From the NCBI GenBank assembly GCA_903970125.1, contig CAJCHW010000117.1, positions 1 to 39,248 of the forward strand: 39,248 bases of DNA. The letters are read 5' to 3'. The stretch's first letter is position 1, and every line of letters begins with the position of its first letter. The translations under genes were made by a program, and so were the position numbers. This document shows, piece after piece, positions 8,984-39,248 of the stretch. Under the pieces are notes generated by a model that made no database searches, was not told where the DNA came from, and worked only from the letters and a program-made list of their open reading frames with translations. This DNA comes from Chlamydiota bacterium. GTDB lineage: Bacteria; Actinomycetota; Thermoleophilia; Solirubrobacterales; Solirubrobacteraceae.

Positions 8984-11900
8984 TCATCCCGGAAGCGGGA
9001 TGTGACACACGAAGGGTCGCCTGAGAGCTGTGTTGATCTGCGCCGGCAGCGGTTCATCCGCGGGGTAGTCGATCTCGCTGATACGTAGGCGCAGAGGATT
9101 TCCGCTGCTCGGCAGCTTGATCGGCGTGTAGCTGGTCCATTCGACTTCGTTCTGGATCTGGCCGGGTGCGCGCACGGAGATGTCCGCGCTGAGCGTGGTG
9201 GTGTAGCCGTCCACCGTGGACCAGCCGAAGTCTGCGCCGAAGGTGCTTTCGAGCTGTTGCTGGACCTCGACGACCATCGTCGAAGTCGTCTGAACGCCTT
9301 CCTTGTTTGAGTTCGGGTGTTCGGCGTCGGGGTTATTGCGGTCAACCCACTCGCCTGGCCCGCGCCATCCGACGTACCCGGGACCACGGACGGTTACATA
9401 GAGTTTGTTGGTCCCGACGACTTCGACGCTGCGGTCGGCGACGGGCTGAGCAAACGTGACGAGTGAGACCGGCGAGACCGAACCCACGAACGGCAAGGCG
9501 GAGGTTTCGGTGAAGGGCTGGTAGCGCACCAGTGACAGACGCAGGAAATAACCGGGCGGCAGCAGCGGCTTGCCCGCCTCGGGGGAGTTCTTGAGCGTGA
9601 TGTCAGCGAACCACAGACCGCTTTCGGGGTCGTACTGTGGCTTGTAGGGCCATACCTCATAGGTATCCTCGGCGTAGGGTTCCTCCACCAGGTTGACGAC
9701 CGACTTGCTCAGTTCCTGCTGCGTTTCGGTGGCCGGCACCTTGGTGTTCGTCACAAACGTCAGCTGGGACTGGCTGACATCGTCGCCCACCAGGTTGGCC
9801 ACGCTGATCGGGTCAAGGCCGAGCGTCGTGACGAGATCGGCTCGAATCACCGATGGCAGCCCCGAGCCGGGGGCGTCGACGGCCACGACCACACCCAGCA
9901 GCTCGTCGGCACCGGTGGCGAACCAGGGCCGCTCCAAGTAGACGCGCAGCGTGTTGCCTTTGCGGTCGTAGCGGTAGCCCGGGCCGGAATTGGTTGCGCC
10001 TTGGCGAGACAGGCTCCAAGCCGGCGCAACCTTCACCACCTTCACCGGCGGCGGCGTCGTGCTCGACAGGACATGACGTTCCTGCGTGGGCCCGATGACG
10101 GTGTCGGTGGGCACAAAGGTCACGGCCAGTTCGGTCTTTTCCAATTCGACCGTTTCTCCAAGCTCTGTGGGTTCTCCAACCGGTGGCCGCTTTACGGTCG
10201 CGCCGCTCTTGAGCGTGATCGTGCCGCCCGGCCCGTCGACTTCATAGAGACTCGAGGGCACCGTGACGGCGGCGAGCGCGCGACCATGCGGCGCTTCGCC
10301 GACCGGTACTTCAGGCACCACGACCTTCAGGCTGTTCGGGCTGATCCCGCGCGCGTCGATGATCGTCGCCGTCGTGCTCAGCTTCACGAGGATCGTGGAC
10401 GCGAAAAACTCGCCGAAGCGGCTTGCGGCCGTGGCGGTGTACTTGACCAGGTGGTGCTTGGTGTCTCCAATGCGCTGTTCGGCGTAGAACTTGGGCCCGA
10501 TTTCGTCAAAGGGCCCTTCAAAGCCGATGAACCCAAACGGGCTCTTTTCATCGGCAGGAGGCAGCGCAGTCACGGGCCCGGCCGGCACCACGGGCGGATA
10601 GAGATTTTCGACGTGGAGGAGCAGGCCGCCCTGCGAGAAAGTCCTGGGGTTTTGCGCGAACGCTCTGGGCACCTTGCCATTGTCTTCCGGTTCTGCGGGG
10701 TTGTACGCCCAGTCTTCCGGTTCTGCGGGGTTGTCAACCGGGTCTGTCCAGGTCGCTTCGTAGGTGACCGTGGCGGTGCTCGGCGGGTCAACCACATAGT
10801 GCTTGTCTTCGATTGTCACAGCGGTGCTGTTGGGCAGGCGGCTGAACGCGCAGGACGCCGAGAAGACCGGTCGGCGCTGTGGTTTGAGCACCGCGTAGAC
10901 CACGGTCAAAGTCTCCGCGGGGGTCAGCTGGTACTGGGACCCTCCAAGCGCCCGAGCCTTGGCCGCCGCGGGATTGGGCGGTGGTGGCGGGGGACCAAAC
11001 CCGAAGTGTGACGACGTCAGCGTGGCCTTTTCGATCCACGGCCAAAGACCGAATGACCCCAGCTCTCCGAGTTCATCCGCTCTTTCCGTAGCTGCAAACG
11101 CGCTGCTGATTTCGAGCTGGTACACCGACCCTGGAACCACGGTCATCGTCAGCACCCTCGCCTTTTCCCGTTCGCCGTCGTGAAAAGACCAGACCGGGTC
11201 AGCTAGCCAGGGCCAGTGGTCTGTGGGATCCTTTTCGTCGACCGAGTCAAACCCCTCGTAGGGTTCGTGCGCCGGCTTGACCACCAGCAGCTTGGCGACG
11301 AGCGCAGGCCAGGTGCCCTCCCATAGGTCAACAAAGGGCTCAAGGCCGCCGGGTACCGGGTCATATCCCAGGGCCATCGGCTGCTTCGGGGCGCCGGTGC
11401 CGTTGATCGCCAGTCCCACCGCCGGCGGGTCCACGAGCCATTTGGCCTGTACTTCTGGCACCCCTTCGTGAGTGTTGTAAGGCAGCACGAGATTTGGCAC
11501 GCCGGCACTGCCGGGCTCGTTCTTCATACCCGTAATGTCTGTCAGCGAGCCGTCGTTGTATTCGGCGATGAGCTTCTCGGCAGCCAACGTCGGAACGCCT
11601 TCTTCGTCGAACGCCCCGTGCTCCTCGGCCAGCAGCTCGTGCACCTTGGGAGGAAACAGCCAGCGCGCGTTTGGCTCCGGGAGGAGCAGGCCGCCGTCAT
11701 CGCGGATGACCATGGTCAGCGCTCCCTCGCCTACGGTCAGCGCTGCCGTGGGAACAATGAACGGTGGTCTCACAGGTTCCCATCGATAGTGGGTCGCCGC
11801 GAGTACCTCCGGCGAAACGCCCGTAGAGGGTGTGAACTGTGGCAGCGACCAACCGGTCAGATCCACTGTGCGCGCGCGATAGAAGTAGGTATTGCCGAAA

Positions 11901-13789
11901 CGCAGCGGCGGCAGCCCCGTCTGGCCGAGTTCTTCGTTTTGGTTTCCAGGCTGCGTGATCACGGTTCCGGCCGGGGGAATCGAGAACTTGGCGGAGACCT
12001 GGGGGTTGATGCTTCCTTCCTTTTCGTGCGTTGGCACCGGGTTCGTGTCTTCGTCTTCTAGGGAGACCGTGCCGTCGTTCATGATGTGGCGGCCGGGGCG
12101 CGGAGCGGAGAGGCTCCACCCGTCCCAGCGGGCGATCGACTCGTGGATCCACAACTGGGCCGGTGAGTCACCCTTGTTTTCGACCGGCTGATGGGTCACG
12201 CCGGGGCTCACGAAGCCCTCAATCGGCACTTCCTCGTTGAGTTCTTCGGGGTGTGTCGTACCGAACACGTATTTGCCGAACCTCCAGTGCAACGAGTCCC
12301 AGCTCAGCGGGGTGCCCGCCTGGTCAATAAATCCGGGGGGCGTGCCCACATCGAGGCGCCAGCCGCGCGTGAGATGCTCGGAGTAGACCAGCGGCGAGGG
12401 CGGCTTGGAGTTGGGATTGGCTTCGATCCATGCCTTTACTTCTTCTTGGAACTTCGTCTGAAGCCAGGCCAGTGCTGCGAGGTTAAGCGAGCTGCCTTCG
12501 GTGACGGGGGTGGGAGTGGTTGGGATTTCTTCACCCCATCCGTGCCAGAGCAACGACGGCCCCGCCGACCTCAGACTCGGCAGCCTCAGGTCGACCGCGA
12601 CGCGGGACCCCCTGTGCGCTTCGAAGGTGGTTTCCAGGCCCGCAAGTGTGGTCGTCAGAGCCTGGCACGCGCCGTCGATGTCGATGTCGAGGATCGCGAA
12701 TTGAGGCATGGTCCCTTCGTACTTTTTGCCGAGAAGCAGGAACCCGGCGCCGGCTGAGCTTGAGTCGTTGTTGTAGTCAGAGCCGTAGGGCCTGGGGAGA
12801 AAGGTCGCGGACACGCCCACCGTTCTCGGCGTCACGTCGTCGCTCTGCTTCACTTCGGTTTCATTGCTCCCAGCCGACGAGGTCCACTCAGGCTTGACGC
12901 TGAGCAGAAAGTAGGGGTGACTACTGCCCTGTCCAGGCACGTTGGTCTGCCGGGGCAAGCCCGCGAGGCTGACCGTAAACGTGAATGCCAATCCGAAGTA
13001 CTGCAGCAGCTCCGGGTAGGCCGAAAGCGACGAGACCGCTTGGTGGAAGTCGATGACCGGCGCTTCAGTCGGCGGCTTGACACGTTCATGTTTGGCGACT
13101 TCGTGAAACTTCAGGACGCGATAGAACTGTTGAGGTCGCTCCGTTAGGTTCGAGTACGCCTCATACTGCGCGCCCGACGTCTCGACCGGCATCAGGTAAC
13201 CGGGCTCGATCCCACCGATGCCGCCGATGCTGCCGACACCTCGATAGAGGTCGGGACGGGCCATGCCTCTGACGAGATGGACCTCCTTCTCGCCCGGTTC
13301 GGGCTTGAAGTTCAACGGAGTGGCCGGGGCGGCATTCAGGGGGCCATAAAGACCTTCGACGTAACTGTGCACGGGCGCCGCGTGAAAGGTCTTGATCGGG
13401 ATCCCGTTGAAGTTCTCGATCGCGAACGGATCCACGCGCGTCGATTTGCCTTCTTCGGGGAACATCGTCGTCCAGTACTGCGGCTTGAGTTCCGTGAGGT
13501 CCGGTTCGACTTCGACTTCGATTCCGCCTTCTTCGTGAAGCTCGGCGTTGACAGGCACGATCTTCACCTTGAACTTGATCGGCCCCGACCGCGAGTTCTT
13601 CATCGTTTCAGGCCAGTTGATCCAATCGGTATAGGTGGACAGGTGCGGTGGCGTGCCGCCGCCGGGGCTTGCCGAGAGCTGCGGCGTCACGAACACCGAC
13701 ACGCGCGCCTGTTGTTCGTTTGATCCCGGGACAAAGCCCTGTGGCAACGCGGTCCAGATGACCGCCTGATCGTAAGTTTCTGTGCCCAT
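8984..13789 (-). CDS. 1601-aa protein of unknown function, Tat-linked block
   Basis: I cannot assign a function or a named domain. The product lacks a signal peptide and membrane helices. It looks mostly beta, rich in Pro, Gly, Thr and Val, with only about three cysteines. Visible landmarks: an N-terminal part with RVSVFVTPQL; HESIARWDGWSL and RARTVDLTGWSLP in the middle; RWLFPPKVHELLAEEHGAFD; a six-proline run near residue 935; a ten-residue tandem repeat (NPAEPED...) near 1018-1037; and LRVYLERPWF with LLGVVV further on. The phrases recall large uncharacterised bacterial proteins of similar size, but I know no role for them. ATG 13789 lies 16 bases after the 909-aa gene, so the two are co-transcribed. 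Glutamate is mainly GAA (6 of 7 in one N-terminal segment). Enzyme, scaffold or surface protein are all open. Confidence 0.75.
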   Translation of the reverse strand: MGTETYDQAVIWTALPQGFVPGSNEQQARVSVFVTPQLSASPGGGTPPHLSTYTDWINWPETMKNSRSGPIKFKVKIVPVNAELHEEGGIEVEVEPDLTELKPQYWTTMFPEEGKSTRVDPFAIENFNGIPIKTFHAAPVHSYVEGLYGPLNAAPATPLNFKPEPGEKEVHLVRGMARPDLYRGVGSIGGIGGIEPGYLMPVETSGAQYEAYSNLTERPQQFYRVLKFHEVAKHERVKPPTEAPVIDFHQAVSSLSAYPELLQYFGLAFTFTVSLAGLPRQTNVPGQGSSHPYFLLSVKPEWTSSAGSNETEVKQSDDVTPRTVGVSATFLPRPYGSDYNNDSSSAGAGFLLLGKKYEGTMPQFAILDIDIDGACQALTTTLAGLETTFEAHRGSRVAVDLRLPSLRSAGPSLLWHGWGEEIPTTPTPVTEGSSLNLAALAWLQTKFQEEVKAWIEANPNSKPPSPLVYSEHLTRGWRLDVGTPPGFIDQAGTPLSWDSLHWRFGKYVFGTTHPEELNEEVPIEGFVSPGVTHQPVENKGDSPAQLWIHESIARWDGWSLSAPRPGRHIMNDGTVSLEDEDTNPVPTHEKEGSINPQVSAKFSIPPAGTVITQPGNQNEELGQTGLPPLRFGNTYFYRARTVDLTGWSLPQFTPSTGVSPEVLAATHYRWEPVRPPFIVPTAALTVGEGALTMVIRDDGGLLLPEPNARWLFPPKVHELLAEEHGAFDEEGVPTLAAEKLIAEYNDGSLTDITGMKNEPGSAGVPNLVLPYNTHEGVPEVQAKWLVDPPAVGLAINGTGAPKQPMALGYDPVPGGLEPFVDLWEGTWPALVAKLLVVKPAHEPYEGFDSVDEKDPTDHWPWLADPVWSFHDGEREKARVLTMTVVPGSVYQLEISSAFAATERADELGELGSFGLWPWIEKATLTSSHFGFGPPPPPPNPAAAKARALGGSQYQLTPAETLTVVYAVLKPQRRPVFSASCAFSRLPNSTAVTIEDKHYVVDPPSTATVTYEATWTDPVDNPAEPEDWAYNPAEPEDNGKVPRAFAQNPRTFSQGGLLLHVENLYPPVVPAGPVTALPPADEKSPFGFIGFEGPFDEIGPKFYAEQRIGDTKHHLVKYTATAASRFGEFFASTILVKLSTTATIIDARGISPNSLKVVVPEVPVGEAPHGRALAAVTVPSSLYEVDGPGGTITLKSGATVKRPPVGEPTELGETVELEKTELAVTFVPTDTVIGPTQERHVLSSTTPPPVKVVKVAPAWSLSRQGATNSGPGYRYDRKGNTLRVYLERPWFATGADELLGVVVAVDAPGSGLPSVIRADLVTTLGLDPISVANLVGDDVSQSQLTFVTNTKVPATETQQELSKSVVNLVEEPYAEDTYEVWPYKPQYDPESGLWFADITLKNSPEAGKPLLPPGYFLRLSLVRYQPFTETSALPFVGSVSPVSLVTFAQPVADRSVEVVGTNKLYVTVRGPGYVGWRGPGEWVDRNNPDAEHPNSNKEGVQTTSTMVVEVQQQLESTFGADFGWSTVDGYTTTLSADISVRAPGQIQNEVEWTSYTPIKLPSSGNPLRLRISEIDYPADEPLPAQINTALRRPFVCHIPLPG
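8985..9002 (-). other. Perfect hairpin over the stop codon of the 1601-aa gene
   Basis: CATCCCG (8985-8991) pairs with CGGGATG (8996-9002) around a four-base loop. It includes the last codons and the stop (8984-8986) of the 1601-aa gene. No T-run follows on the minus strand, so an RNA-processing or partial-terminator role is as likely as true termination. Confidence 0.5.
10682..10734 (-). repeat. 23-bp direct repeat, period 30, inside the 1601-aa gene
   Basis: The same 23 bases, beginning GTCTTCCGGTTCTGCG, occur at 10682-10704 and 10712-10734. Period 30 keeps frame and yields the repeated peptide NPAEPED. It is a recent in-frame duplication. Confidence 0.85.
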
Positions 13790-13805
13790 ATCCGGTCTCT
13801 ATGCC

Positions 13806-16535
13806 TCAGGAAATCGCTCGTGGTGGCGCATTGAAGGCACCAACGTAGGTTTTCCAGTCTTCTTCATCGATGAGGTCTTCCCATTTGAGCTTCGGTTCTG
13901 GGAATTCGGCATCAGGCCGCGCAGCCGCGCTGGCGGCCGCCAGCGCCTTGTCGGTTGCCCGGCGCACGGAGGAGCTGGATTTGGAACCTCCTGCAAATTC
14001 TTTGTGCATCGTGATTGACACCGACGCGCCGAAGCCGAACACGGAGAAGTGCGCACGCAAGGTGGCCGTGCCTTCGGCCCTCCCCGGTGGCGTTTCGTAT
14101 ATCAGCGAGAGCACCAGTTCGGCGCTGATCGAGATGATCCCGAGCACTTCCAGCTGGCCCGTGACGCGGACGAAGCCTTCCAAGAAAACGCTGTGCTTTT
14201 CCACTTCGTACTTGATGTAGATACCGGCGACCAGGCTCAGGCTGCCGCTGGCGACGACGATGTCGAAGCCGAAGTGCCCCTCGAATTCGAACTGAAGTTC
14301 GACCGACTGAACGCCGCCGAAGCCGACGGAGAGTGCCACGAAGCCGCCGCCGCCGAACATCACAACCGTCAAGGTGAACGGGTTCTCCTTGCTCGCGAAC
14401 CCGAACGTGGCGATCGCAGTGCCGGAGATGAACGGGATGTCGACGCTGCCGTTGAAACCCAGACCTGACAGGCTGAGGATTCCGACTTCGATGGGCGGCA
14501 ACGTGATCGACGTGCCGATCTTGATGTCGGTCGGTTCGACGTGGACCGAGAGACCTTCGCCGCCAAGCGATTCAAGGAATTCCTCAAGCGTCTGGACGAA
14601 TTCGAGTGCGCCCTCAAAGTTGACTTCGTTGAGGTTCACGTGGATTGACGGCTTGCCGCCACTGACTGAGGTGAAGGTGAACGACTCGAAGTGAAGCCTC
14701 AAAAAGTAAGTTTCGGAGTTCTCTCCGAACAGGCAGATCGCGAACGGGTCGATCGACCCTTCGACGTTGTAGGTCGGTGGCGCACCGTCCAAGCCCTTGA
14801 CGACTTCGGTGACGAGGGTCAGATACCCGGGACTGCCATCGGGCACAAACACGGGGTATTGTTCTTCGGGTCCCCAGCTCTTGAGGGCCGTGTGCAGCTT
14901 GTACTTGACCGTCGGCGGCCCCGAGGATGGGTCCATCAGCGAGCTGATCGTTGGTGTCTGAAACCCTTCTTCGCCGTCGCCGTCGGGGCGCGCGAGCCAC
15001 GAACCGGGCACTGCCGCGGCTTCACTGACAGCGCCCTGAAGGATGTCCACCAGCTTCAGGCCACCGAGCAGTTCCGACAGCGCGGCCGCTCCGGCTTCCT
15101 CGGCTTCCTTGAAGTATTCCTTTAGTTTCGCGCCACCTTCCTTGGCATAGTTTTCGAGACTTTCGAGCACCCCGCCGGACCCCTTTTTCAGGCCACCGCC
15201 CACCGCGCCGATGGCCGCGGAGAGCCCGGCGATCGTGGCGTTCGGGGTCCCGAGCGCTCCGACCGACGAGGAGGGCAGGTTCAGGGCGACGTTGTTGACC
15301 GTTTCCGCATAGACACTCCCGGGATTTTCTGTAGCGGCCGTGCCGTCCGGTCTCGCGCTCCCGGCCGCGGCGGCCTTGCGTGCGCCGGGCCCGTAGTGTG
15401 AGGTTCCCAGCGCCACATAATGTGGGTAGTACCGGAACTCAACGCCCCCCACCGCCGGGCGCTTTCCAGGCGGTGGCCCTTGTTCGTCAGAAAAGTCCTC
15501 GCCCCGGAGCGCGTCGGCGGCGTGCAGGCGGACCCTCGCGCTGCTGATGGTCGGATAGAAGTTCGGCTGAGCCGCGTTGATAAGTGCCGCCTCCCCCGGG
15601 CCTGAGGGCTCGGCCGAGCTGTTTTCGTTGCTCGTGCTCGTCGCTGCCCCGAGCACGAGCAGCAGCGTCGGATGGGTCGTGTTGCCCTTGGTGGTCTTTC
15701 CGGGGACCTCCGGCGCAAAACGCAAAGGCGCTCCCCCCGGCCGCGACCAGGTCTGATGGGAGCCGCTTTCCCGCACCGCTTTGTACATCTCGACAAGTTC
15801 TTCTGTCCATGATCCTGAGCCCGTCTTGTACTCTTGCCCTGATCCGGGAACGTAGACCAGCGGCATCTCAAAGGCGATGTCGTTGCCGGCGAGATCGGTG
15901 GCCACGAACCGCCAGAGAAAGTCAACTCTTGAGCTTTCCGGTTCATAGGTTGGCCAGAACGCCTTCTTTTCTTCCTGTGAAGATCCGATGTACTTGTCCG
16001 TGTAGATTTCCGGCGTCACGAGCGTGACCATGCGCACCGAGGAAAACGGCCAGTCGCTCGCTCCCCCGCTGGCCTCCGCAAAAGGCTGACCCGTGGCACC
16101 GTAGGCTTTGACAGGCTGCGCGACCTTGATGAATTTCCGCACCTGCAGATAGGCGAGCGGCGCCGAGCCGGAGTCGTGGGCGCCGTTTGTAGGTTCGGGT
16201 GCGATGACCCGCTGGAAAATTTCGGTCAGGGTCGCGCGGTGACCGAGCGGGAACAGATAGCCGCGCTTCACAACCACCGAATGCACCGTGCGACCGTAGG
16301 AACCGATGTCCAGCCATGACACGAGTTCGGGCTTCGGCTTCAGCTTGGTCGTCGACCAGTCGCCGTACAACTCGGCGTTGGCCCCAAGCGCGCTCAGTTC
16401 GAGCTTGTCGACTTCGATAAACGCTTCTTTTGAAAGCTCGACCAGGTTTTGCCGGCCGAGCTTGTTAAGGGTCGTGAACTGAAACTTGTCGTTGGGACCG
16501 TCTGGTTCGAACTTGGTCTTCTGCTCTTCGCTCAC
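13806..16535 (-). CDS. 909-aa protein of unknown function, Tat-linked block
   Basis: No named family recognised and no signal peptide. The first 400 residues look beta-rich; near residue 200 there is DFLWRFVATDLAGNDIAFE, a phrase similar in style to RARTVDLTGW in the next protein. Residues about 430-508 are Gly/Ala-rich and probably helical (GGGLKKGSGG, KLKEYFKEAEEAG). From about 640 to 850 there are long alternating hydrophobic strands with glycine clusters (FGGGGFVALSVGFGG) and repeated acidic turns, as in beta-barrel or beta-helical sheets. One cysteine. It begins with GTG at 16535, overlapping the stop of the Tat-signal gene by four bases (GTGA), a sign of translational coupling and perhaps of a joint complex. 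Glutamate is GAA in five of five C-terminal positions counted. Location in the cell is unknown. Confidence 0.75.
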   Translation of the reverse strand: MSEEQKTKFEPDGPNDKFQFTTLNKLGRQNLVELSKEAFIEVDKLELSALGANAELYGDWSTTKLKPKPELVSWLDIGSYGRTVHSVVVKRGYLFPLGHRATLTEIFQRVIAPEPTNGAHDSGSAPLAYLQVRKFIKVAQPVKAYGATGQPFAEASGGASDWPFSSVRMVTLVTPEIYTDKYIGSSQEEKKAFWPTYEPESSRVDFLWRFVATDLAGNDIAFEMPLVYVPGSGQEYKTGSGSWTEELVEMYKAVRESGSHQTWSRPGGAPLRFAPEVPGKTTKGNTTHPTLLLVLGAATSTSNENSSAEPSGPGEAALINAAQPNFYPTISSARVRLHAADALRGEDFSDEQGPPPGKRPAVGGVEFRYYPHYVALGTSHYGPGARKAAAAGSARPDGTAATENPGSVYAETVNNVALNLPSSSVGALGTPNATIAGLSAAIGAVGGGLKKGSGGVLESLENYAKEGGAKLKEYFKEAEEAGAAALSELLGGLKLVDILQGAVSEAAAVPGSWLARPDGDGEEGFQTPTISSLMDPSSGPPTVKYKLHTALKSWGPEEQYPVFVPDGSPGYLTLVTEVVKGLDGAPPTYNVEGSIDPFAICLFGENSETYFLRLHFESFTFTSVSGGKPSIHVNLNEVNFEGALEFVQTLEEFLESLGGEGLSVHVEPTDIKIGTSITLPPIEVGILSLSGLGFNGSVDIPFISGTAIATFGFASKENPFTLTVVMFGGGGFVALSVGFGGVQSVELQFEFEGHFGFDIVVASGSLSLVAGIYIKYEVEKHSVFLEGFVRVTGQLEVLGIISISAELVLSLIYETPPGRAEGTATLRAHFSVFGFGASVSITMHKEFAGGSKSSSSVRRATDKALAAASAAARPDAEFPEPKLKWEDLIDEEDWKTYVGAFNAPPRAIS

Positions 16536-17842
16536 GACCGCCGATCACCCCGCTGGTGGCGACGCCTGCGAGCCATCCGCCTGCGCTTGGCCCCGGACTT
16601 CTTGCTTCTCGTGACCAAAGCCTTGCTTCTCGTGACCGCTGCACCCGTGCCCGTCGTCGGCGAAGTGCCGCTGACGTTCGTGGGCGAAGTCGGAGCGCCC
16701 GTTTGGATCCCGGCCGTACTGGGCTTGGCGCGGCGGCGGATCTGGGGAGGCGGAAACGGTTCGTAGTTGATTTCGGTCCACGGGGTAGCGCCCTCTGTGC
16801 CGACGCCTGATTCATAATCGCGCGCGTAGATTGCCGCGACTTGGGGTTTGCGTGGGGGTGGTGGTGGTGACGAGTACTCGACGCCGCGGTATTGGAACTC
16901 GAGGCGATCGCGGTCGTAGGTGGTGACTTCCAGCGCCGTCGTCCAGAGGTCGCTGATCCCCGTGGTCGGGGAGCCGGCCTGATGTTCGCCGACCAGAGGT
17001 TCCGTGCGCCCGTTGAACTTGGTCGTGAACCCGAAGAAGGCCCCGCCGATGTCAACGGTCGGCGCGAGAAAAACCGCGTACGGGTACTCGATTGAAGTCA
17101 CGAATTCGCCCGGCTTGGCGGGGGGGCTTGAATCCGGTCTCGCGTCGGGGAGGCGCGCCGTGTTGCCCGCGGTACGGTCAAACGGCTCTCTGAAAATCCC
17201 CACGCCGCCCTCCACGCCGCCTTCATCGACCTGCGCCACCGCGGGAACCAGCAGCGTCCACGAGCTCCAGTCGAGCAGGTCCGCGGCGGTCATCGTCGTA
17301 AAGTCGACCTGCTGGCCGGTGTTGAGCGTGAAACAGAGCCTGCTTGGGCCCGAGACCGCCGACATCACCGGCGGCGGATCGACAACCCAGTCTGGTTCGT
17401 GACCGTCGGCGGCATACGTATAGATGGCCTCGCCGATCGCCTGCGGAGGCAGCTGGACGACGATCACGTTGCTGCTTGACGCCGGCACCAGCGAGGTCAC
17501 CGAGCCGGGACCGTAGTTCAGCAGGAAGCCGTGGAAGGTGATGTCGAGCAGGGCCAGGTCGGCCTCGCGCTCGACCGAGAATGTGAAGGTCTGCGGGACC
17601 TGCTGCCTTTGGATCGGGATGCCACCGACATCCCTGGCGAGCGCCGTGAGCAGGCGGGCGGGTCCGTCGGGATACCCGGCGAGGACCGCGGCAAGCGACG
17701 TTGCGGCGCCGCCGGTGAGCATCTGCCTGCGCGTGATCCCATAGCGGCTGCGCGCCTCGCCGCCATCGGCCTTCCCAGACCCAGCCAGTCGGTCCGGGAC
17801 CGGTCCCTCGGGCCCTGGCGCCCCTGAGACCTCGTCGGCCAT
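16532..17842 (-). CDS. Tat-signal protein of unknown function, first gene of the block
   Basis: The protein has 436 residues. A long N-terminus carries a twin-arginine motif, ITRRQML (RR at 38-39), followed by a mildly hydrophobic stretch (about 43-57, TGGAATSLAAVLAGY), typical of Tat export or a Tat anchor. The exported part has TFTFSVERE, then a beta-rich body with SIEYPYAVFLAP and DLWTTALEV, a run of six prolines, and a Thr/Ser-rich linker. It ends in an extremely basic tail (RSKKSGAKRRRMARRRRHQR) that could bind an anionic wall or nucleic acid. No catalytic motif is visible. It is the only member of the first three genes with an export signal. It is preceded by a likely promoter and overlaps the next gene by four bases. 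Glutamate codons are GAG near the start and mixed later. Confidence 0.82.
   Translation of the reverse strand: MADEVSGAPGPEGPVPDRLAGSGKADGGEARSRYGITRRQMLTGGAATSLAAVLAGYPDGPARLLTALARDVGGIPIQRQQVPQTFTFSVEREADLALLDITFHGFLLNYGPGSVTSLVPASSSNVIVVQLPPQAIGEAIYTYAADGHEPDWVVDPPPVMSAVSGPSRLCFTLNTGQQVDFTTMTAADLLDWSSWTLLVPAVAQVDEGGVEGGVGIFREPFDRTAGNTARLPDARPDSSPPAKPGEFVTSIEYPYAVFLAPTVDIGGAFFGFTTKFNGRTEPLVGEHQAGSPTTGISDLWTTALEVTTYDRDRLEFQYRGVEYSSPPPPPRKPQVAAIYARDYESGVGTEGATPWTEINYEPFPPPQIRRRAKPSTAGIQTGAPTSPTNVSGTSPTTGTGAAVTRSKALVTRSKKSGAKRRRMARRRRHQRGDRRS
16601..16637 (-). repeat. 16-bp direct repeat in the basic tail of the Tat-signal protein
   Basis: CTTGCTTCTCGTGACC occurs at 16601-16616 and 16622-16637 (period 21 = 7 codons), giving the doubled VTRSK peptide. 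Confidence 0.85.
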
Positions 17843-33366: not shown

Positions 33367-34434
33367 TCACCGGACGGCGGGCGCGGAGGCCGCGGTGGGC
33401 GCTCCGAGCACAGCCGTTTCCATCGCACCCAGCTCCACTGGACAGGTGATCACAGCACCTTCGGTCTGCGCAATCGCCACCTCTGGGTCCTTGATGCCAC
33501 GCCCCGTGAGCACGCACACCACGCGGTTGGCGCCGTCGGCGCCGTACTTCAGCAGACCCGCCACAGATGCCGCCGAGGCCGGCTCGGCGAACATTCCTTC
33601 CTCGGTGGCCATGAGCTTGTAGGCGTGCAGGATCTCTGAGTCGGAAACGATCCTGATCGAGCCCCCGGACTCCGAGGCGGCCGTGAGCGCGTCGTCGCCG
33701 CGGACCGGCTTGCCGATCCTGATGGCGCTGGCGACGGTGTCGGGGTGCTCGACGGGATGACCGAGCACGAGCGGTGCGGCGCCGGCGGCTTGAAAGCCGA
33801 AAAGGCGCGGCGCGGCGTCCATCTCGCGAAATCCACGCCAGTAGGAGGTGATGTTTCCGGCGTTGCCCACGGGAATGCACAGCAGGTCGAGATCACCGGA
33901 GAGGTCTTCGAGCAGCTCGAATGCCGCCGTCTTCTGGCCTTCGATGCGGTATTCGTTGAGCGAGTTGACGAGCGCGATGGGGTGATCTTCGACGAGCTTG
34001 CGGACCAGCCCAAGCCCCTCGTCAAAGCTCCCCTTCAGCGAGACCACGCGCGCGCCGTGGATGAGCGTCTGTGCGAGCTTGCCCATCGCGATCTTGCCCT
34101 CGGGCACGATCACGGCGCATGTGATACCGGCGCGTGCCGCGTACGCGGCGGCACTCGCGGCTGTGTTGCCCGTGGAGGCGCAGATGACGGCCTTGGCGCC
34201 GTCGCGTACTGCAGCCGAGACGGCGCACGTCATGCCGCGGTCCTTAAAGGAGCCCGTGGGGTTGGCGCCCTCGGTCTTGAAGTACACCTCGGCACCGACC
34301 TGGTCGGAGATCACGGGAGCGAACACGAGTGGCGTGGCGCCCTCGCACAGGCTCACGTCGGGGTCATCGGCCTCGAAGGGCAGATGCTCGCGCCAGCGCT
34401 CAATCAGGGAGGGTCGGGTGCGCACGATTGTCAT
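33367..34434 (-). CDS. thrC: Threonine synthase
   Basis: Converts O-phosphohomoserine to threonine with PLP. The 355-aa length is that of the short bacterial/actinobacterial class. The PLP lysine is K64 in TGSFKDRGM, and VGNAGNIT supplies the phosphate loop. It lies 40 bases after hom and 25 before thrB. Confidence 0.95.
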   Translation of the reverse strand: MTIVRTRPSLIERWREHLPFEADDPDVSLCEGATPLVFAPVISDQVGAEVYFKTEGANPTGSFKDRGMTCAVSAAVRDGAKAVICASTGNTAASAAAYAARAGITCAVIVPEGKIAMGKLAQTLIHGARVVSLKGSFDEGLGLVRKLVEDHPIALVNSLNEYRIEGQKTAAFELLEDLSGDLDLLCIPVGNAGNITSYWRGFREMDAAPRLFGFQAAGAAPLVLGHPVEHPDTVASAIRIGKPVRGDDALTAASESGGSIRIVSDSEILHAYKLMATEEGMFAEPASAASVAGLLKYGADGANRVVCVLTGRGIKDPEVAIAQTEGAVITCPVELGAMETAVLGAPTAASAPAVR

Positions 34435-34474
34435 CGGTCAGATTGGATGGTGCCAGAGGCGGCGGGTGCCGTGC

Positions 34475-35698
34475 TCAGAGGAACTCCTCTTCGATCACCC
34501 GGATGGTCCGCGGCACCGAGCCGACGAACTCAAGCTCGCCGATCAAGCGGGTGGCCTCGCGCAGCCGTGATTCGGATATCGGGTGGGTCACCATCACCAA
34601 ACGGGCGTTCTCACCCAGGCCGCGCTGGGACACCGATTTGATCGAGGCGCCGTGCTCGCCGAGCAGCCCGGCGACGGCAGCGAGGGCACGCGGCCGGTCG
34701 GCCACCTCCATGTGCAGGTAGAAAGCGCTTGAGACGTCGCTTACGAGCGGTAGTGGCTGCGCAGGCGGCGCGGGCGCGGCGCGTTCGCAGATCACACTCA
34801 CGAGGTCCCCAAGCACTGCACTCGCGGTCTGGCGCCCACCGGCACCGGGCCCGGACATGGTGATCTCGGTGATCGCGTCGGACTCCACAGTGACGGCGTT
34901 GAAGGGTCCGCTGATCGAAGCCAGCGGGTGGCCGCCGTAGAGGAACGTGGGATGCACGCGCACCGAGATGCCGCCATTGAGCCGCTCGGCGGTGCCCACG
35001 AGCTTCAGTCCGAGCCCGAGCTCGCGGGCATACTGCATGTCATCGGCATGGAGATGCTCGATGCCTTCGTAACGCACGTCCTTCAGGGCCACGGGCGTGC
35101 CAAAGGCGAGGCGCGCCAGAATCGCCATCTTGGCTGCGGCGTCGCGGCCGGAGACGTCTGCGGAGGGATCGGCCTCGGCGATGCCCTGACGCTGGGCCTC
35201 GGCAAGAGCGTCGGGATAGCTGGCACCGCGCTCCATCTCGGACAAGATGAAGTTGGTGGTGCCGTTGACGATTCCGTGGATGCGCTCCACGTGCGCACCG
35301 GCAAGCGACTCTTGCAGCACGCGGACCACGGGGACGACGCCGGCCACGGCGGCCTCGAAACGCAGCTGCACGCCGTGTTGGCGGGCGGCGTCAAAGAGCT
35401 CCTCGCCGTGCTCGCACACAAGCTGCTTGTTGGCCGTGATCACATGCCGGCCGGCTTGCATGGCGTCCAGCAGGTACTGGCGTGCCGGTTCGATGCCGCC
35501 GATGAGCTCCACGAGGAGCTCGGAGGAGTCCAACACATCCTGGAAGCTTCCGCGTGACGTCGTGAGCACGCCACACAGCGTGGGCGCGCGCCCGGTGAGC
35601 GCGGCGATCGCCTCACTGCGCTCTTCCAGAAGCTTGGCAAACGCGGAGCCGACCGTGCCCAGGCCGAGCAATCCGACGTTGTAGGGGCTAGGTGACAC
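34475..35698 (-). CDS. hom: Homoserine dehydrogenase with C-terminal ACT domain
   Basis: Reduces aspartate semialdehyde to homoserine. The 407-aa protein has the NAD(P) glycine motif GLLGLGTVG (9-17), a catalytic core with GIVNGTTNFIL and DVSGRDAAAK, and a C-terminal ACT domain (about 325-400) which in this family gives threonine feedback inhibition. GTG 35698 starts inside the last codons of lysA (11-base overlap); ATG 35728 would give 10 extra residues. Confidence 0.94.
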   Translation of the reverse strand: MSPSPYNVGLLGLGTVGSAFAKLLEERSEAIAALTGRAPTLCGVLTTSRGSFQDVLDSSELLVELIGGIEPARQYLLDAMQAGRHVITANKQLVCEHGEELFDAARQHGVQLRFEAAVAGVVPVVRVLQESLAGAHVERIHGIVNGTTNFILSEMERGASYPDALAEAQRQGIAEADPSADVSGRDAAAKMAILARLAFGTPVALKDVRYEGIEHLHADDMQYARELGLGLKLVGTAERLNGGISVRVHPTFLYGGHPLASISGPFNAVTVESDAITEITMSGPGAGGRQTASAVLGDLVSVICERAAPAPPAQPLPLVSDVSSAFYLHMEVADRPRALAAVAGLLGEHGASIKSVSQRGLGENARLVMVTHPISESRLREATRLIGELEFVGSVPRTIRVIEEEFL

Positions 35699-36965
35699 TG
35701 CGCGCCGCCATATCCTCGAAGGTCTCACGCCGCTCCACCACGCGTGCCTGGCCGCCGGAGCAGAAGATCACGGGCGGACGGGGCACACCGTTGTAGTTGT
35801 TTGCCATTGCGTAGGTGTACGCGCCTGTGACGGGGGTGACAACGACGTCGCCGACGCGGGGGTCATCGAGGATCGCCTTGGCGACAAGCACGTCGCCGGA
35901 CTCGCAGTGCTTGCCCGCGAGCACGCACTCGGTGGAGCCGCCAATGCGGTCGGCTACATGCGCTTCGTAGACAGCGCTGTAGAGCATGGGGCGCAGGTTG
36001 TCGGACATGCCACCGTCCACGGCCACCCATGTGGACACGTTGTGCTTGACCACTTGCACGGTGTAGATCGTGACGGCACTGGGCGCCGTCAGGGCCCGTC
36101 CGGGCTCAATCAGCAGCTGACTGTGCTCGCCCAGATGCTCACGCGCGGCTTGCGCGAGCGCATCGACATACTGCTCGATCGTGGGGGGCTGCTGCTCGCA
36201 CAGGTAGGCCACCCCCAGCCCTCCGCCCAGGTCCCACGTGGCAAAGGGACCGAGCTGACCGAGCTGGGCGGCACTGCGGCGAAATGGCTCCAGGTCAAGC
36301 AGCTGGGAGCCGATGTGGGCGTGGATCCCGCGCAAGGACAGTCCTCCGATTGCAGCGATTCGGTCGAGCGCGGGCTGGACGTCGGCGAGCGAGAAGCCGA
36401 ACTTGGAGTTGGCCTGACCGGTGGAGATCTTGGCGTGCGTGTCGCCGCGGACGTCTGGGGTGACGCGGATGAGCACGGGCTGTGGCGCAGCGTCGCGGCC
36501 GGCCACGAGCTCCTCAAGGCGCCGGATCTCGTCGAAGTTGTCGATCACGATCAGGCCGACGCGGTGCTCCAAAGCGGCTCGCAACTCGTCCTCGGATTTG
36601 GCGTTGCCGTGCATCACGATGCGCCCGGGGGCAAACCCGGCGCGCAACGCGAGGTAGAGCTCGCCGCCACTTGCCACGTCGCACCACAGCCCCTCCTCGG
36701 CGAGGACCTCCAGCACGGCGATGCATGGGAAGGCCTTGGACGCAAAGACAACGCTCATGGGCGCGCCGGTCGCGCTGTGCGCGGCGGCCACAAACCGGCG
36801 TGCGCGGGCGCGCAGGTCGTCCTCGGCGACCACATACGCGGGCGTGCCGTACTCGGCGGCAAGCTCGATCAGGTCGCACCCCCCCACCTCGACTCGCTGG
36901 CGCTCGTTGAGGCGGCTTCCAACGGGAAAGACCCCTAGCAGTCCAGTGCTCGTCTCGATCGCCAT
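35688..36965 (-). CDS. lysA: Diaminopimelate decarboxylase
   Basis: Last step of lysine synthesis: decarboxylates meso-diaminopimelate. The 425-aa fold-type III PLP enzyme has the Schiff-base lysine K77 in FASKAF, HAHIGSQ, EPGRAL and the CESGD motif with its catalytic cysteine. ATG 36965 is chosen; the frame reaches 37133 but that part overlaps the divergent htpX. First gene of the aspartate-family operon; argS, often beside lysA in actinobacteria, is absent here. Confidence 0.94.
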   Translation of the reverse strand: MAIETSTGLLGVFPVGSRLNERQRVEVGGCDLIELAAEYGTPAYVVAEDDLRARARRFVAAAHSATGAPMSVVFASKAFPCIAVLEVLAEEGLWCDVASGGELYLALRAGFAPGRIVMHGNAKSEDELRAALEHRVGLIVIDNFDEIRRLEELVAGRDAAPQPVLIRVTPDVRGDTHAKISTGQANSKFGFSLADVQPALDRIAAIGGLSLRGIHAHIGSQLLDLEPFRRSAAQLGQLGPFATWDLGGGLGVAYLCEQQPPTIEQYVDALAQAAREHLGEHSQLLIEPGRALTAPSAVTIYTVQVVKHNVSTWVAVDGGMSDNLRPMLYSAVYEAHVADRIGGSTECVLAGKHCESGDVLVAKAILDDPRVGDVVVTPVTGAYTYAMANNYNGVPRPPVIFCSGGQARVVERRETFEDMAARSVT

Positions 36966-37053
36966 GGTGGGAGAGATTATGGGGGATTGGGGCCCCCGAC
37001 CCGTGCCGTCCCGCCGGTGTCCGTGTGGCACAATCGCTGGCGAGGGCACTGAA

Positions 37054-37974
37054 ATGGCACGCGGACGACCACAGGGGTTTGGCAGAGACACGGGCTTGCA
37101 GGCCCGCATGCTGCTGACGATGTTTTTGCTCACGCTGCTCTATGTGGCGTTCGTGGGGGCACTGTTCGCAGCGGGAGCTGGAGCGCTCCTGATCGCTGTG
37201 GTGGCGGTGGTACTGCTTGTGCTCCAGTTGTCCACAGCCGACAAGCTGGCGCTGGCAACGCTAGGGGCAAAGCAGGTGACACCCCAGCAGGAGCCCGAGC
37301 TGCACGCGATCATCGAGCGTCTGTGCGTGCAGGCAAACCTGCCCAAGCCACGCGTCGCGGTGATCGAAAGCTCGATGCCGAACGCTTGCGCGATGGGGCG
37401 CTCGCCGAAGAAGGCCACGGTGTGTGCGACGCGCGGGATCCTCGAACTGCTCGACACCTCGGAGCTTGAAGGCGTGATGGGACATGAGCTCACCCACGTG
37501 GTCAACAGGGACGTGATGGTGATGACGTTCGCGAGCTTCTTTGCCACGCTGGCGGCGATGATCATGCAGTTCGCGCTCTTCTTCGGCGCCTTTGGCGGTG
37601 GCGGGTATGGCCGTGGGGCTCGCGACGAGGAGGAGGACATTTTGATTGTGCTGCTCGTGGCCGCCGTGGTTTACGCGATCTCCTTCGTGTTGCTGCAAAC
37701 GCTCTCGCGCTACCGCGAGTTCGCTGCCGACCGCGGCTCGGCGGTGCTCACGGGGCGCCCCAGCGCGCTCTCATCGGCGCTGCTGAAGATCGATGGAGCG
37801 ATGCACCGCACACCGACGAAGGATCTGCGTGTCGCCGAAGGCATGAGCGCGTTCTTCATCATCCCGGCACGCAGCAAGCAGTCGATCATGAACCTCTTCT
37901 CAGACCACCCCCCGCTGGACAAGCGCCTGGCTGCCCTCAGTCGCCTGGAGTCACAACTCCAGGGCACGGCGTAA
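37054..37974 (+). CDS. htpX: HtpX-type membrane zinc metalloprotease
   Basis: Integral-membrane M48 peptidase that degrades misfolded membrane proteins. The 306-aa protein has two N-terminal helices (about 20-60), the zinc motif HELTH (144-148), further helices (about 155-215), and the third ligand region YREFAADR (near 225). ATG 37054 has GAGGG seven bases upstream. It is followed after 16 bases by pspAB, an arrangement known for the actinobacterial phage-shock-type envelope response. Confidence 0.94.
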   Translation: MARGRPQGFGRDTGLQARMLLTMFLLTLLYVAFVGALFAAGAGALLIAVVAVVLLVLQLSTADKLALATLGAKQVTPQQEPELHAIIERLCVQANLPKPRVAVIESSMPNACAMGRSPKKATVCATRGILELLDTSELEGVMGHELTHVVNRDVMVMTFASFFATLAAMIMQFALFFGAFGGGGYGRGARDEEEDILIVLLVAAVVYAISFVLLQTLSRYREFAADRGSAVLTGRPSALSSALLKIDGAMHRTPTKDLRVAEGMSAFFIIPARSKQSIMNLFSDHPPLDKRLAALSRLESQLQGTA

Positions 37975-37990
37975 GGGAAAGCGGGTAAGG

Positions 37991-38689
37991 GTGGGGCTGC
38001 GCGACATCCTCACGGGCCGCCACTCGGTCCAGGGACCGGCCCCGGAGAAGCTGTTCGCGATCTCGACGGCGTACATCACGCTTGCAACGGAGCACGATAT
38101 TCAGCCCACGGGCAAAGCCGCGATCGTCTTTCAGCCCCTCGCGACTAGCGAGTTCGAGGCCACGATGCGAGAAATGGAAGAAGTCGTCAAGGCGACGGGC
38201 GCCGAGGGTGGCACCCAGGTGGCCTCCCAAAACGACTCCTATGGGTACCGCTGGATGGTGGTCTCAAACCCGCCCAGCCAGCCAAGCGTCGAAGACCTGG
38301 CGGTGGCGATCAACGCCGTGTCGGACTCGATTGAGGGCGGTGGCCATGGCGAGCGTCTGCTGTGCGCGGTGTTCGCGTTCCATCACGTCGATAGTGGGGC
38401 TGCGGCTGGCGACATGGGCGGGGCTGGGGCTGGGGACAGCACGAGCGCAGGGGCGGATGTCCCGAGCTGGGCAACGGACCTGACCTCCGGCGCGCTCACC
38501 CCGGGCGCGGGCCTGGTCTACTTCATCTACAACTACAAGCGCGGTTACTGGTACCCGTTCGTGCCGGCGCCGGGCGATGAGCAGCGATCGACTGAACGCG
38601 AGCTTCAGCTCAAGGCGCAGATGGCCAAGGAACTGCCGATCGAGCCCGAAATGGACCGCTGGTTCCCGCTCTGGGGGATCCCCATCTAG
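37991..38689 (+). CDS. pspAB: PspA-associated protein PspAB
   Basis: A 232-aa soluble protein matching the PspAB family, which co-occurs with HtpX and PspA in actinobacteria. Marks: GLRDILTGRHSVQGPAPEKL at the start, AIVFQPL, YGYRWMVV, LLCAVFAFH, and a tail with YNYKRGYWYPFVP and MDRWFPLWGIP. The function is not established; envelope-stress regulation is inferred from neighbours. Start GTG 37991, 16 bases after the htpX stop. The middle contains a Gly/Ala-rich low-complexity stretch (about 138-155). Confidence 0.85.
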   Translation: MGLRDILTGRHSVQGPAPEKLFAISTAYITLATEHDIQPTGKAAIVFQPLATSEFEATMREMEEVVKATGAEGGTQVASQNDSYGYRWMVVSNPPSQPSVEDLAVAINAVSDSIEGGGHGERLLCAVFAFHHVDSGAAAGDMGGAGAGDSTSAGADVPSWATDLTSGALTPGAGLVYFIYNYKRGYWYPFVPAPGDEQRSTERELQLKAQMAKELPIEPEMDRWFPLWGIPI

Positions 38690-38708
38690 AGGGATCTCGA
38701 TCTGGATG

Positions 38709-38731
38709 GCAGCGGGCGGGTGCCCCGCTGC
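38709..38731. terminator. Bidirectional hairpin between pspAB and pspAA
   Basis: GCAGCGGG (38709-38716) pairs with CCCGCTGC (38724-38731) around a seven-base loop in the 48-base gap between the convergent stops. No T-run. Confidence 0.5.
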
Positions 38732-38737
38732 GCGCCC

Positions 38738-39016
38738 CTACTCCGGCAGCCAGCCCTCGCCCGTGAAGTTGTCGACGGCCTCCGAGAGCGACGTGTCTGA
38801 CGGCGGCAAGATCAGGTCCGAGGACTCAAGGGCCTCGTCCTCAAGCGGCGTACCGCTGGCGCGCACGAAGTCCAGCAGTTTGGCAAAAGCGGCGTCGAAA
38901 GCGGGCTCGTCGCCGCGTTCCAGGGCAGCAAGTACCTCGTGGTCAAGATCGTTGAGCTCGGCCTCGTGGGCGCTGTCCAAGCGGAACTGATCCTCGCCGG
39001 CGATGCGCACGATCAT
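38738..39016 (-). CDS. pspAA: PspA-associated protein PspAA
   Basis: A 92-aa protein with the PspAA pattern: MIVRIAGEDQFRLD start, LNDLDHEVLAAL, DFVRASGTPL, SSDLILPPSD and FTGEGWLPE end. It normally accompanies PspA in actinobacteria and is thought to modulate the phage-shock response. ATG 39016 overlaps the pspA stop by four bases (ATGA), so the two are translationally coupled. Confidence 0.88.
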   Translation of the reverse strand: MIVRIAGEDQFRLDSAHEAELNDLDHEVLAALERGDEPAFDAAFAKLLDFVRASGTPLEDEALESSDLILPPSDTSLSEAVDNFTGEGWLPE

Positions 39017-39230
39017 GACGATGCGCCTTCGCTGGGACTGGGGGTCTCGGCAGCCACCTCGCCACCGTCGCCGGCCGGCTGGCTGGCCTCAGCGGGAGCG
39101 GCAGAGGCGGGCGAATCGGTCCCATCGGTAGCGGGCGCAGCCAGCTCACCGGCAGCGGGCGCGGGGCCCCCGATCTCAGCCTTCATCTTCGCCATTTCGT
39201 CGTCTACGGCGGACTGGTTTGAGAGCTGCT
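39013..39230 (-). CDS. pspA: PspA/IM30-family protein, C-terminal end only
   Basis: Only the last 72 codons or so are present; the 5' part is lost at the contig end. The fragment has NQSAVDDEMAKMKAEIGG, the usual end of the PspA/IM30 coiled coil (membrane-maintenance protein), then an Ala/Pro/Glu-rich tail of about 50 residues. The assignment relies on this short match and on the overlap with pspAA. Apparent sequence beyond 39230 is adapter. Confidence 0.75.
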
Positions 39231-39248
39231 AGATCGGAAGAGCGTCGT
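39231..39248 (+). other. Illumina sequencing adapter remnant at contig end
   Basis: The last 18 bases, AGATCGGAAGAGCGTCGT, equal the start of the standard Illumina TruSeq adapter read-through. They are not genomic. They also create a false stop (TAG on the minus strand) at the broken pspA end. Confidence 0.97.

What the first reader, a model, noticed from the sequence alone, without database searches (positions are those of the whole stretch)
37054..39230. Actinobacterial Psp module split across convergent pairs
htpX-pspAB (plus) faces pspAA-pspA (minus). All four families co-occur in actinobacterial envelope-stress systems; finding them end to end supports one regulon. The PspA copy has an unusual Ala/Pro/Glu tail of about 50 residues.
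Basis: partly seen in the sequence, partly recalled or inferred. Interest (0 to 1): 0.5.

Follow-up and report, generated by a model that had tools for sequence, protein, structure and literature searches.

The report
Membrane-stress module in facing gene pairs
Two facing gene pairs at the end of this bacterial contig encode four proteins of a known membrane-protection system; the system itself is ordinary, but the facing layout, a four-base overlap between two of the genes and a short motif in a loose protein tail recur in many relatives.

Summary
The window carries htpX (37054-37974 +), pspAB (37991-38689 +), pspAA (38738-39016 -) and the 3' end of pspA (39013-39230 -); its last 18 bases are adapter.

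The four-family association is published (Ravi et al. 2024, PMC11237479). Added here: the pairs face each other in 55 of 56 order-level genomes with both on one contig, and in six Chloroflexota loci. Six other Actinomycetota genomes have one run pspA-pspAA-htpX-pspAB (a seventh is cut before pspA), which supports a shared function. pspA's stop overlaps pspAA's start by 4 nt in 55 of 56 order relatives, but only 14 of 24 elsewhere in the phylum. The tail is long, not unusual: tails run 14-84 residues, 56 of 58 carry [QEA][LI]xx[GP], and one lineage has the like as linker of a PspA-PspAA fusion. No shared promoter motif was found, so 'one regulon' is not shown. A member of a known kind, with a testable tail-docking idea.

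The parts
37054..37974 (+). htpX: membrane zinc metalloprotease, 306 aa, HEXXH at residue 144
   Evidence: Pfam M48 115.6 bits; NCBIfam NF002669 405.3 bits over cut-off 341; HEXXH and four hydrophobic stretches
37991..38689 (+). pspAB, 232 aa, GTG start, with a 46-residue loop where 15 of 18 measured genus members have 8
   Evidence: Pfam PF22742 199.7 bits; model mean pLDDT 82, loop under 50 in part; loop lengths
38690..38737 (.). 48-nt spacer between the convergent 3' ends
   Evidence: Holds an inverted repeat, but folding is no better than shuffles (z -0.58 and -0.31) and no terminator-like site was found
38738..39016 (-). pspAA, 92 aa
   Evidence: Pfam PF22743 104.3 bits; model with three helices and four strands, mean pLDDT 84
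39013..39016 (-). ATGA: pspA stop overlapping the pspAA start
   Evidence: Sequence; same overlap in 55 of 56 order relatives
39013..39230 (-). 3' part of pspA (the rest on contig C16, bases 1-673)
   Evidence: 30-base exact overlap with C16 and a 286-residue joined reading frame; Pfam PF04012 on the C16 part
39016..39174 (-). 53-residue tail of PspA, rich in Ala, Gly, Pro and Ser, with the motif ELAAP
39231..39248 (.). Illumina adapter sequence, an assembly artefact
   Evidence: Exact match to the adapter (recalled) and a second copy at the end of C74

Best explanation
The locus is a conserved cell-membrane maintenance module split into two facing transcription units. PspA is an ESCRT-III-like protein that polymerises on stressed membrane; PspAA is its small partner, made in step with it because here the pspA stop codon overlaps the pspAA start (translational coupling). 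PspA's flexible tail works as a tether with a short motif; in one sampled lineage a like tail is the covalent linker to PspAA, so the tail most likely holds PspAA next to the PspA polymer. HtpX is a membrane protease that removes damaged membrane proteins, with PspAB as its cytoplasmic adaptor. Shown here: identities, gene layout, overlap, tail motif, fusion. Inferred from the families: membrane binding, proteolysis. Inferred only from anatomy: coupling, PspAA tethering, PspAB as adaptor, joint action of the two pairs.
For: All four families are over curated cut-offs. htpX directly precedes pspAB in 69 of 70 PspAB places and pspA directly precedes pspAA in 69 of 72 PspA places; the misses are G029, and G047, G090 and the window's own contig-split copy (dropped and merged rows are told under Tried and rejected). 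Facing layout in 55 of 56 genomes with both on one contig, G056 being co-directional (the 55 include G021, with PspAB cut by a contig end, and G029, with only a PspAB remnant below the cut-off). Of 80 named loci, 52 hold PspAB or part of it: 51 are convergent, six of them Chloroflexota (34 of the 80 carry a pspAA identical to one of the first set, so the sets overlap). One run pspA-pspAA-htpX-pspAB in six genomes of the phylum sample and pspAA-htpX-pspAB at a contig end in a seventh. Natural fusion: the G179 protein has PspA_IM30 at 1-230 and PspAA at 278-365 with an Ala/Pro-rich link. Tail motif in 56 of 58 (500 shuffles: mean 7.5, maximum 16). 4-nt overlap in 55 of 56 order relatives. Ribosome-binding-like sequence before pspAA stronger than further upstream (55 junctions, mean -7.4 against -4.4, Wilcoxon p 4.6e-7). 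The PspA of the relative G001 matches solved Vipp1/PspA, best E 1.2e-21.
Against: No expression or binding data. No k-mer shared between the lists enriched upstream of pspA and htpX. The pairs occur apart: 10 of 29 PspAA genomes lack PspAB and 6 of 25 PspAB genomes lack PspAA, and four large genomes have them 38-46 kb apart. Outside the two families the 4-nt overlap is absent in 10 of 24 PspA-PspAA pairs, all seven of genus g82 among them (read by eye). In the window itself the ribosome-binding-like signal is weak, -2.8, weaker than all nine upstream control windows. The tail motif is also in 8 of 48 PspA without PspAA, and the lone PspA of G047 has it although no PspAA was found there. The expression was chosen after looking at the tails, and related genomes are not independent.
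Confidence: 0.65

Rival explanations
1. The facing pairs are neighbours only by inherited synteny; the two pairs do separate jobs and the junction is a tolerant insertion site.
For: The flanks are also syntenic in the genus (lysA and hom before htpX, the 286-aa C16 gene next to pspA). No gene family between the pairs recurs in more than 5 of 51 loci. The pairs occur without each other in part of the phylum. No shared enriched k-mer upstream.
Against: Six other genomes of the phylum sample have all four in one co-directional run and a seventh has three of them at a contig end, and six Chloroflexota loci have the facing layout, so adjacency outlives order-level synteny. G261 has pspA directly before htpX-pspAB without PspAA.
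Confidence: 0.25
2. The PspA tail is only a flexible, low-complexity spacer whose last codons serve as the ribosome-binding site for pspAA; the protein motif has no partner.
For: Ribosome-binding-like 4-mers stand just before pspAA in 38 of 55 junctions against a control rate of 0.28. Tail length is highly variable, 14-84 residues. 8 of 48 PspA without PspAA also have the motif.
Against: The motif is found in 56 of 58 tails and is commoner beside PspAA outside the order, 14 of 24 against 8 of 48 (Fisher p 0.0008, no correction for kinship). In the window the ribosome-binding-like signal is weaker than at all nine control places, so it cannot explain this tail.
Confidence: 0.3
3. The junction at the end of the window is an assembly chimera and the pspA end is not truly next to pspAA.
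For: The contig ends in adapter sequence.
Against: Exact 30-base overlap with C16, one open frame across it, and the same order on one contig in G001 and others.
Confidence: 0.02

Closest known systems
PspA-PspAA dyad with membrane metallopeptidase and PspAB (Ravi et al. 2024, PMC11237479; passages read)
   Same: Same four components; the paper describes PspA-PspAA, occasional fusion of the two in Actinobacteria and Chloroflexi, and a system with a membrane metallopeptidase and PspAB.
   Different: The passages I read do not state the facing layout, the 4-nt overlap or a tail motif; figure 3 and the supplementary tables were not seen.
Mycobacterial ClgR-PspA-PspM-PspN system (from passages of PMC11237479)
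   Same: Actinomycetota PspA.
   Different: The gene beside pspA here is a 286-aa protein with no Pfam match; the partners are PspAA and HtpX-PspAB.
E. coli PspF-PspABC
   Same: PspA_IM30 domain.
   Different: The C16 part of PspA scores 75.1 bits against the 242.95-bit cut-off of the PspA model TIGR02977; partners differ.
Eukaryotic ESCRT-III tails with MIT-interacting motifs (recalled, not tested)
   Same: A filament-forming core, a flexible tail and a short motif.
   Different: Motif sequence and proposed partner are different; a resemblance only.
Longer PspA of Actinobacteriota (Popp et al. 2022, PMC9239133; passages read)
   Same: They note many PspA of about 300 aa in this phylum; the PspA here is 286.
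   Different: Their scan found no added domain and they report predicted helices in the C-terminal part; here the extra part includes an Ala/Gly/Pro/Ser tail.

Membership tests
HtpX (M48 membrane protease) | Curated HtpX model and HEXXH zinc motif | tested here: met
   NF002669 405.3 over 341; HEXXH at residue 144
HtpX (M48 membrane protease) | Membrane-spanning segments | tested here: met
   Four hydrophobic 19-residue stretches by hydropathy; topology not tested
PspAB (PF22742) | Curated domain model | tested here: met
   199.7 bits over 27
PspAB (PF22742) | Known fold or biochemical activity | tested here: inconclusive
   No PDB match at E 0.001 or better by Foldseek; best VIA Z 9.1, rmsd 3.0, 83 aligned, to a domain of aIF2 alpha; activity not tested
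PspAA (PF22743) | Curated domain model | tested here: met
   104.3 bits over 27
[quoted passage not shown]
   Predicted model: four strands and three helices, mean pLDDT 84
PspAA (PF22743) | Two-gene cluster with pspA | tested here: met
   4-nt overlap in the window; pspAA follows pspA in 69 of 72 PspA places of the relatives
PspA/IM30 | PspA_IM30 domain | tested here: met
   91.3 bits over 33.9 on the C16 part
PspA/IM30 | Membrane binding and polymer formation | not testable with these tools
   Inferred from homology to solved Vipp1/PspA (run with the PspA of the relative G001)
ClgR-PspAMN system | ClgR-type regulator beside pspA | tested here: not met
   The neighbouring gene on C16 has no Pfam match; ClgR, PspM and PspN were not sought elsewhere in the genome
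Single regulon of the four genes | Shared promoter motif or co-expression | tested here: inconclusive
   No k-mer in common between the 14 most enriched upstream of 57 pspA and of 52 htpX, for k 6 to 8; expression not tested

The most novel reading that the evidence does not exclude
PspA of these phyla carries a flexible tail with a short docking motif, [QEA][LI]xx[GP], that recruits the partner PspAA to the ESCRT-III-like polymer: a bacterial counterpart, in arrangement and not in sequence, of the tail motifs by which eukaryotic ESCRT-III recruits its partners. The facing HtpX-PspAB unit then acts on membrane proteins at the same sites.
Probability: 0.22. Interest if true: 0.6.

Novelty: new member of a known kind. 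Interest (0 to 1): 0.36.

Why it matters
PspAA and PspAB have curated domain models, but no functional study of them stood in the listings of my searches (one search listed 20 of 140 papers). The overlap, the facing or one-run layouts, the fusion and the tail motif give concrete, cheap tests of how these partners join a bacterial ESCRT-III-like membrane-repair protein. The contig join also completes a truncated gene.

Tried and rejected
Shared regulation: k-mers enriched upstream of pspA (TACGCTT in 18 of 57) differ from those upstream of htpX (CTTTAGG in 10 of 52); the 14 best of each list share none (start codons picked by a simple rule). Promoter-like and terminator-like sites in 36900-39248: none (the pspA promoter lies on C16 and was not covered). 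A terminator in the 48-nt spacer: folding no better than shuffles. Rfam on 34000-39248: nothing. A conserved third component between the pairs: no family in more than 5 of 51 loci (ORFs chosen by a simple composition filter; the 19-kb spacers of G031 and G050 were not examined; the -219 printed for G029 comes from reading on a remnant). Solved-structure relatives of PspAA and PspAB by sequence: chance-level matches, best E 0.1 and 0.76. Foldseek: no match at E 0.001 or better for either model. PHROGs: none. Literature: six searches; one search returned none.

Rows left out or merged before the counts: two PspAA matches below the cut-off (G004:C107, G008:C1); four PspA matches below the cut-off (G067:C5, G080:C1, G080:C8 at 939339, G048:C35); two PspAB fragments of G100:C305 and the G021:C140 fragment (in the htpX count only); all other HtpX-like places (paralogues and weak matches, and the list was itself cut). 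Pieces were merged for G000, G001, G013, G019 (PspAB), G050 (PspA) and G053 (HtpX).

Results against the tail idea: 10 of 24 PspA beside PspAA outside the two families lack the strict motif, two of them (G214, G234) having 5-residue tails; 8 of 48 PspA without a PspAA beside them have it, against 3.1 by shuffles, maximum 9. The 24 leave out the fusion G179, and G284 was not fetched; genus g82 supplies seven of the 24. The 48 are those that I fetched, not all, and include second PspA copies of three genomes that have PspAA. PspAB loop lengths could be read in 28 of 55 relatives only.

Full report
What is there. The window is contig C117 of a 2.66-Mb, 214-contig assembly. Its end carries htpX and pspAB on the plus strand and pspAA and the end of pspA on the minus strand. 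All four score over curated cut-offs. The nearest named relatives are mostly Solirubrobacterales records; the closest is CAJCIJ010000236.1, 77% identical in PspAA.

The truncated gene. The last 18 bases are adapter sequence; a 16-mer of it occurs once more in the assembly, at the end of contig C74. Contig C16 begins with the 30 bases of window 39201-39230 and continues pspA. The joined protein has 286 residues. The near relative G001 has the whole locus on one contig; its PspA is 95% identical over 224 residues.

Layout in relatives. Of 101 genomes (own and 100 relatives) 70 have PspAA, 70 PspAB and 71 PspA. htpX directly precedes pspAB in 69 of 70 PspAB places; the exception, G029, has only a remnant. 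In 56 genomes both partners lie on one contig: 55 are convergent and one, G056, is co-directional. The distance runs from overlapping stop codons (G007 with CTAG, G016 with TTAG) to about 19 kb. Genes in between recur little: the largest family is in 5 of 51 loci examined. The outer neighbours lysA, hom and the C16 286-aa gene are syntenic in the genus and partly beyond, so inherited synteny explains part of the conservation.

Layout beyond the order. Of 217 genomes sampled in the phylum, 29 have PspAA, 25 PspAB and 93 PspA; 19 have both partners. Of these 19, five are convergent (the window's genome and two of its family among them), seven are co-directional, four are divergent at 38-46 kb, and three are farther apart or on separate contigs. 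In all seven co-directional cases htpX lies between pspAA and pspAB; pspA precedes pspAA in six, and in G284 the contig ends before it. G261 has pspA directly before htpX-pspAB and no PspAA. Of 80 named loci, 51 are convergent, one is co-directional (L159, matching G056) and 28 hold no PspAB within the stretch; of eight Chloroflexota loci six are convergent and two hold no PspAB. The one-run form is the strongest evidence that the four genes act together; the facing form is a second, widespread state.

The overlap. In one search the pspA stop lies inside the pspAA start (ATGA or GTGA) in 55 of 56 relatives with PspAA beside an uncut pspA; the exception is G024. Of the 80 named loci 75 show it directly, two more (L146, L165) once the match start at residue 8 is allowed for, and three do not (L107, L125, L141). 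Outside the two families it holds in 14 of 24 pairs; the ten without are G191, G214, G234 and the seven of genus g82 (read by eye). Just before pspAA the coding sequence binds the anti-Shine-Dalgarno better than windows further upstream (55 junctions, mean -7.4 against -4.4, p 4.6e-7). In the window this signal is absent: -2.8, weaker than all nine control windows. Translational coupling is therefore likely from the overlap alone, and is not universal.

The tail. The window's tail has 53 residues; 58 tails range from 14 to 84, and only G047's is longer. So it is long, not odd. 56 of 58 have [QEA][LI]xx[GP] (shuffles mean 7.5, maximum 16). The expression was chosen after seeing these tails. Applied unchanged outside the two families, it is found in 14 of 24 PspA beside PspAA (shuffles mean 1.7, maximum 7) and in 8 of 48 without (shuffles mean 3.1, maximum 9); Fisher p 0.0008, without correction for kinship. 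In Chloroflexota six of eight tails fit it, counted by eye. In G179, PspA and PspAA are one protein with an Ala/Pro-rich link that also holds the motif. The tail of the split proteins thus takes the place of the linker of the fusion.

Models. PspAA is predicted with four strands and three helices (pLDDT 84), as published. PspAB is predicted as an alpha/beta domain (pLDDT 82) with a poorly modelled loop; its residues 40-132 resemble ferredoxin-like domains at Z up to 9.1, rmsd 3.0, 83 aligned, a common arrangement that shows no function. The loop is 46 residues in the window and 43 in G001, but 8 in 15 of the 18 genus members in which it could be read.

Regulation. The most enriched k-mers upstream of 57 pspA and 52 htpX have none in common. 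No sigma-70-like promoter or terminator-like site was found in 36900-39248. One regulon remains unshown.

What is known. Ravi et al. 2024 (PMC11237479; passages read) describe PspAA, its occasional fusion to PspA in Actinobacteria and Chloroflexi, and a system with a membrane metallopeptidase and PspAB. The word 'convergent' does not occur in its main text; its figures and supplements were not seen. Popp et al. 2022 (PMC9239133; passages) note long PspA in Actinobacteriota without added domains. The system is therefore known; the layout counts, the overlap and the tail motif are additions that I did not find in these passages.

Noticed in passing
window 39231-39248 and contig C74 from 31662 to its end: Adapter sequence left at two contig ends of the assembly.
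   Followed up: yes
window 38392-38513 (pspAB): A Gly/Ala/Ser-rich loop of 46 residues interrupts PspAB; the near relative G001 has 43, 15 of 18 measured genus members 8, G080 33.
   Followed up: partly
L140, L145, L163: Records titled 'Bifidobacterium breve' MAG carry a Solirubrobacterales-like pspA-pspAA locus; L145's contig has the same length as that of G033, which the tool places in the window's family. The titles are probably wrong.
   Followed up: partly
L034 and L044 (G007, G016): pspAB and pspAA end in overlapping convergent stop codons (CTAG in G007, TTAG in G016).
   Followed up: partly
L091 (G050): PspA has a tandem duplication of 18 residues in its coiled coil.
   Followed up: no
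L191 (G261): pspA directly followed by htpX-pspAB with no PspAA: a link between PspA and the protease pair.
   Followed up: partly
L092 (G047): Lone pspA with an 84-residue tail; no PspAA or PspAB match in that genome.
   Followed up: partly
L087 (G029): Only a remnant of pspAB beside pspAA and no htpX there: a decayed locus, or one cut by rearrangement.
   Followed up: no
L085:786-1646: Gene beside pspA on C16: 286-aa protein with no Pfam match; a YDCSGS stretch recalls NlpC/P60 enzymes (recalled, not tested).
   Followed up: partly
window 3128-8515 (-): 1795-aa protein with 15 stretches matching the carboxypeptidase-regulatory-like domain, also SdrD- and SpaA-like; perhaps a surface protein.
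   Followed up: no
window 8984-17842 (-): Three large ORFs (1601, 909 and 436 aa) in a row without any Pfam match at 0.001.
   Followed up: no
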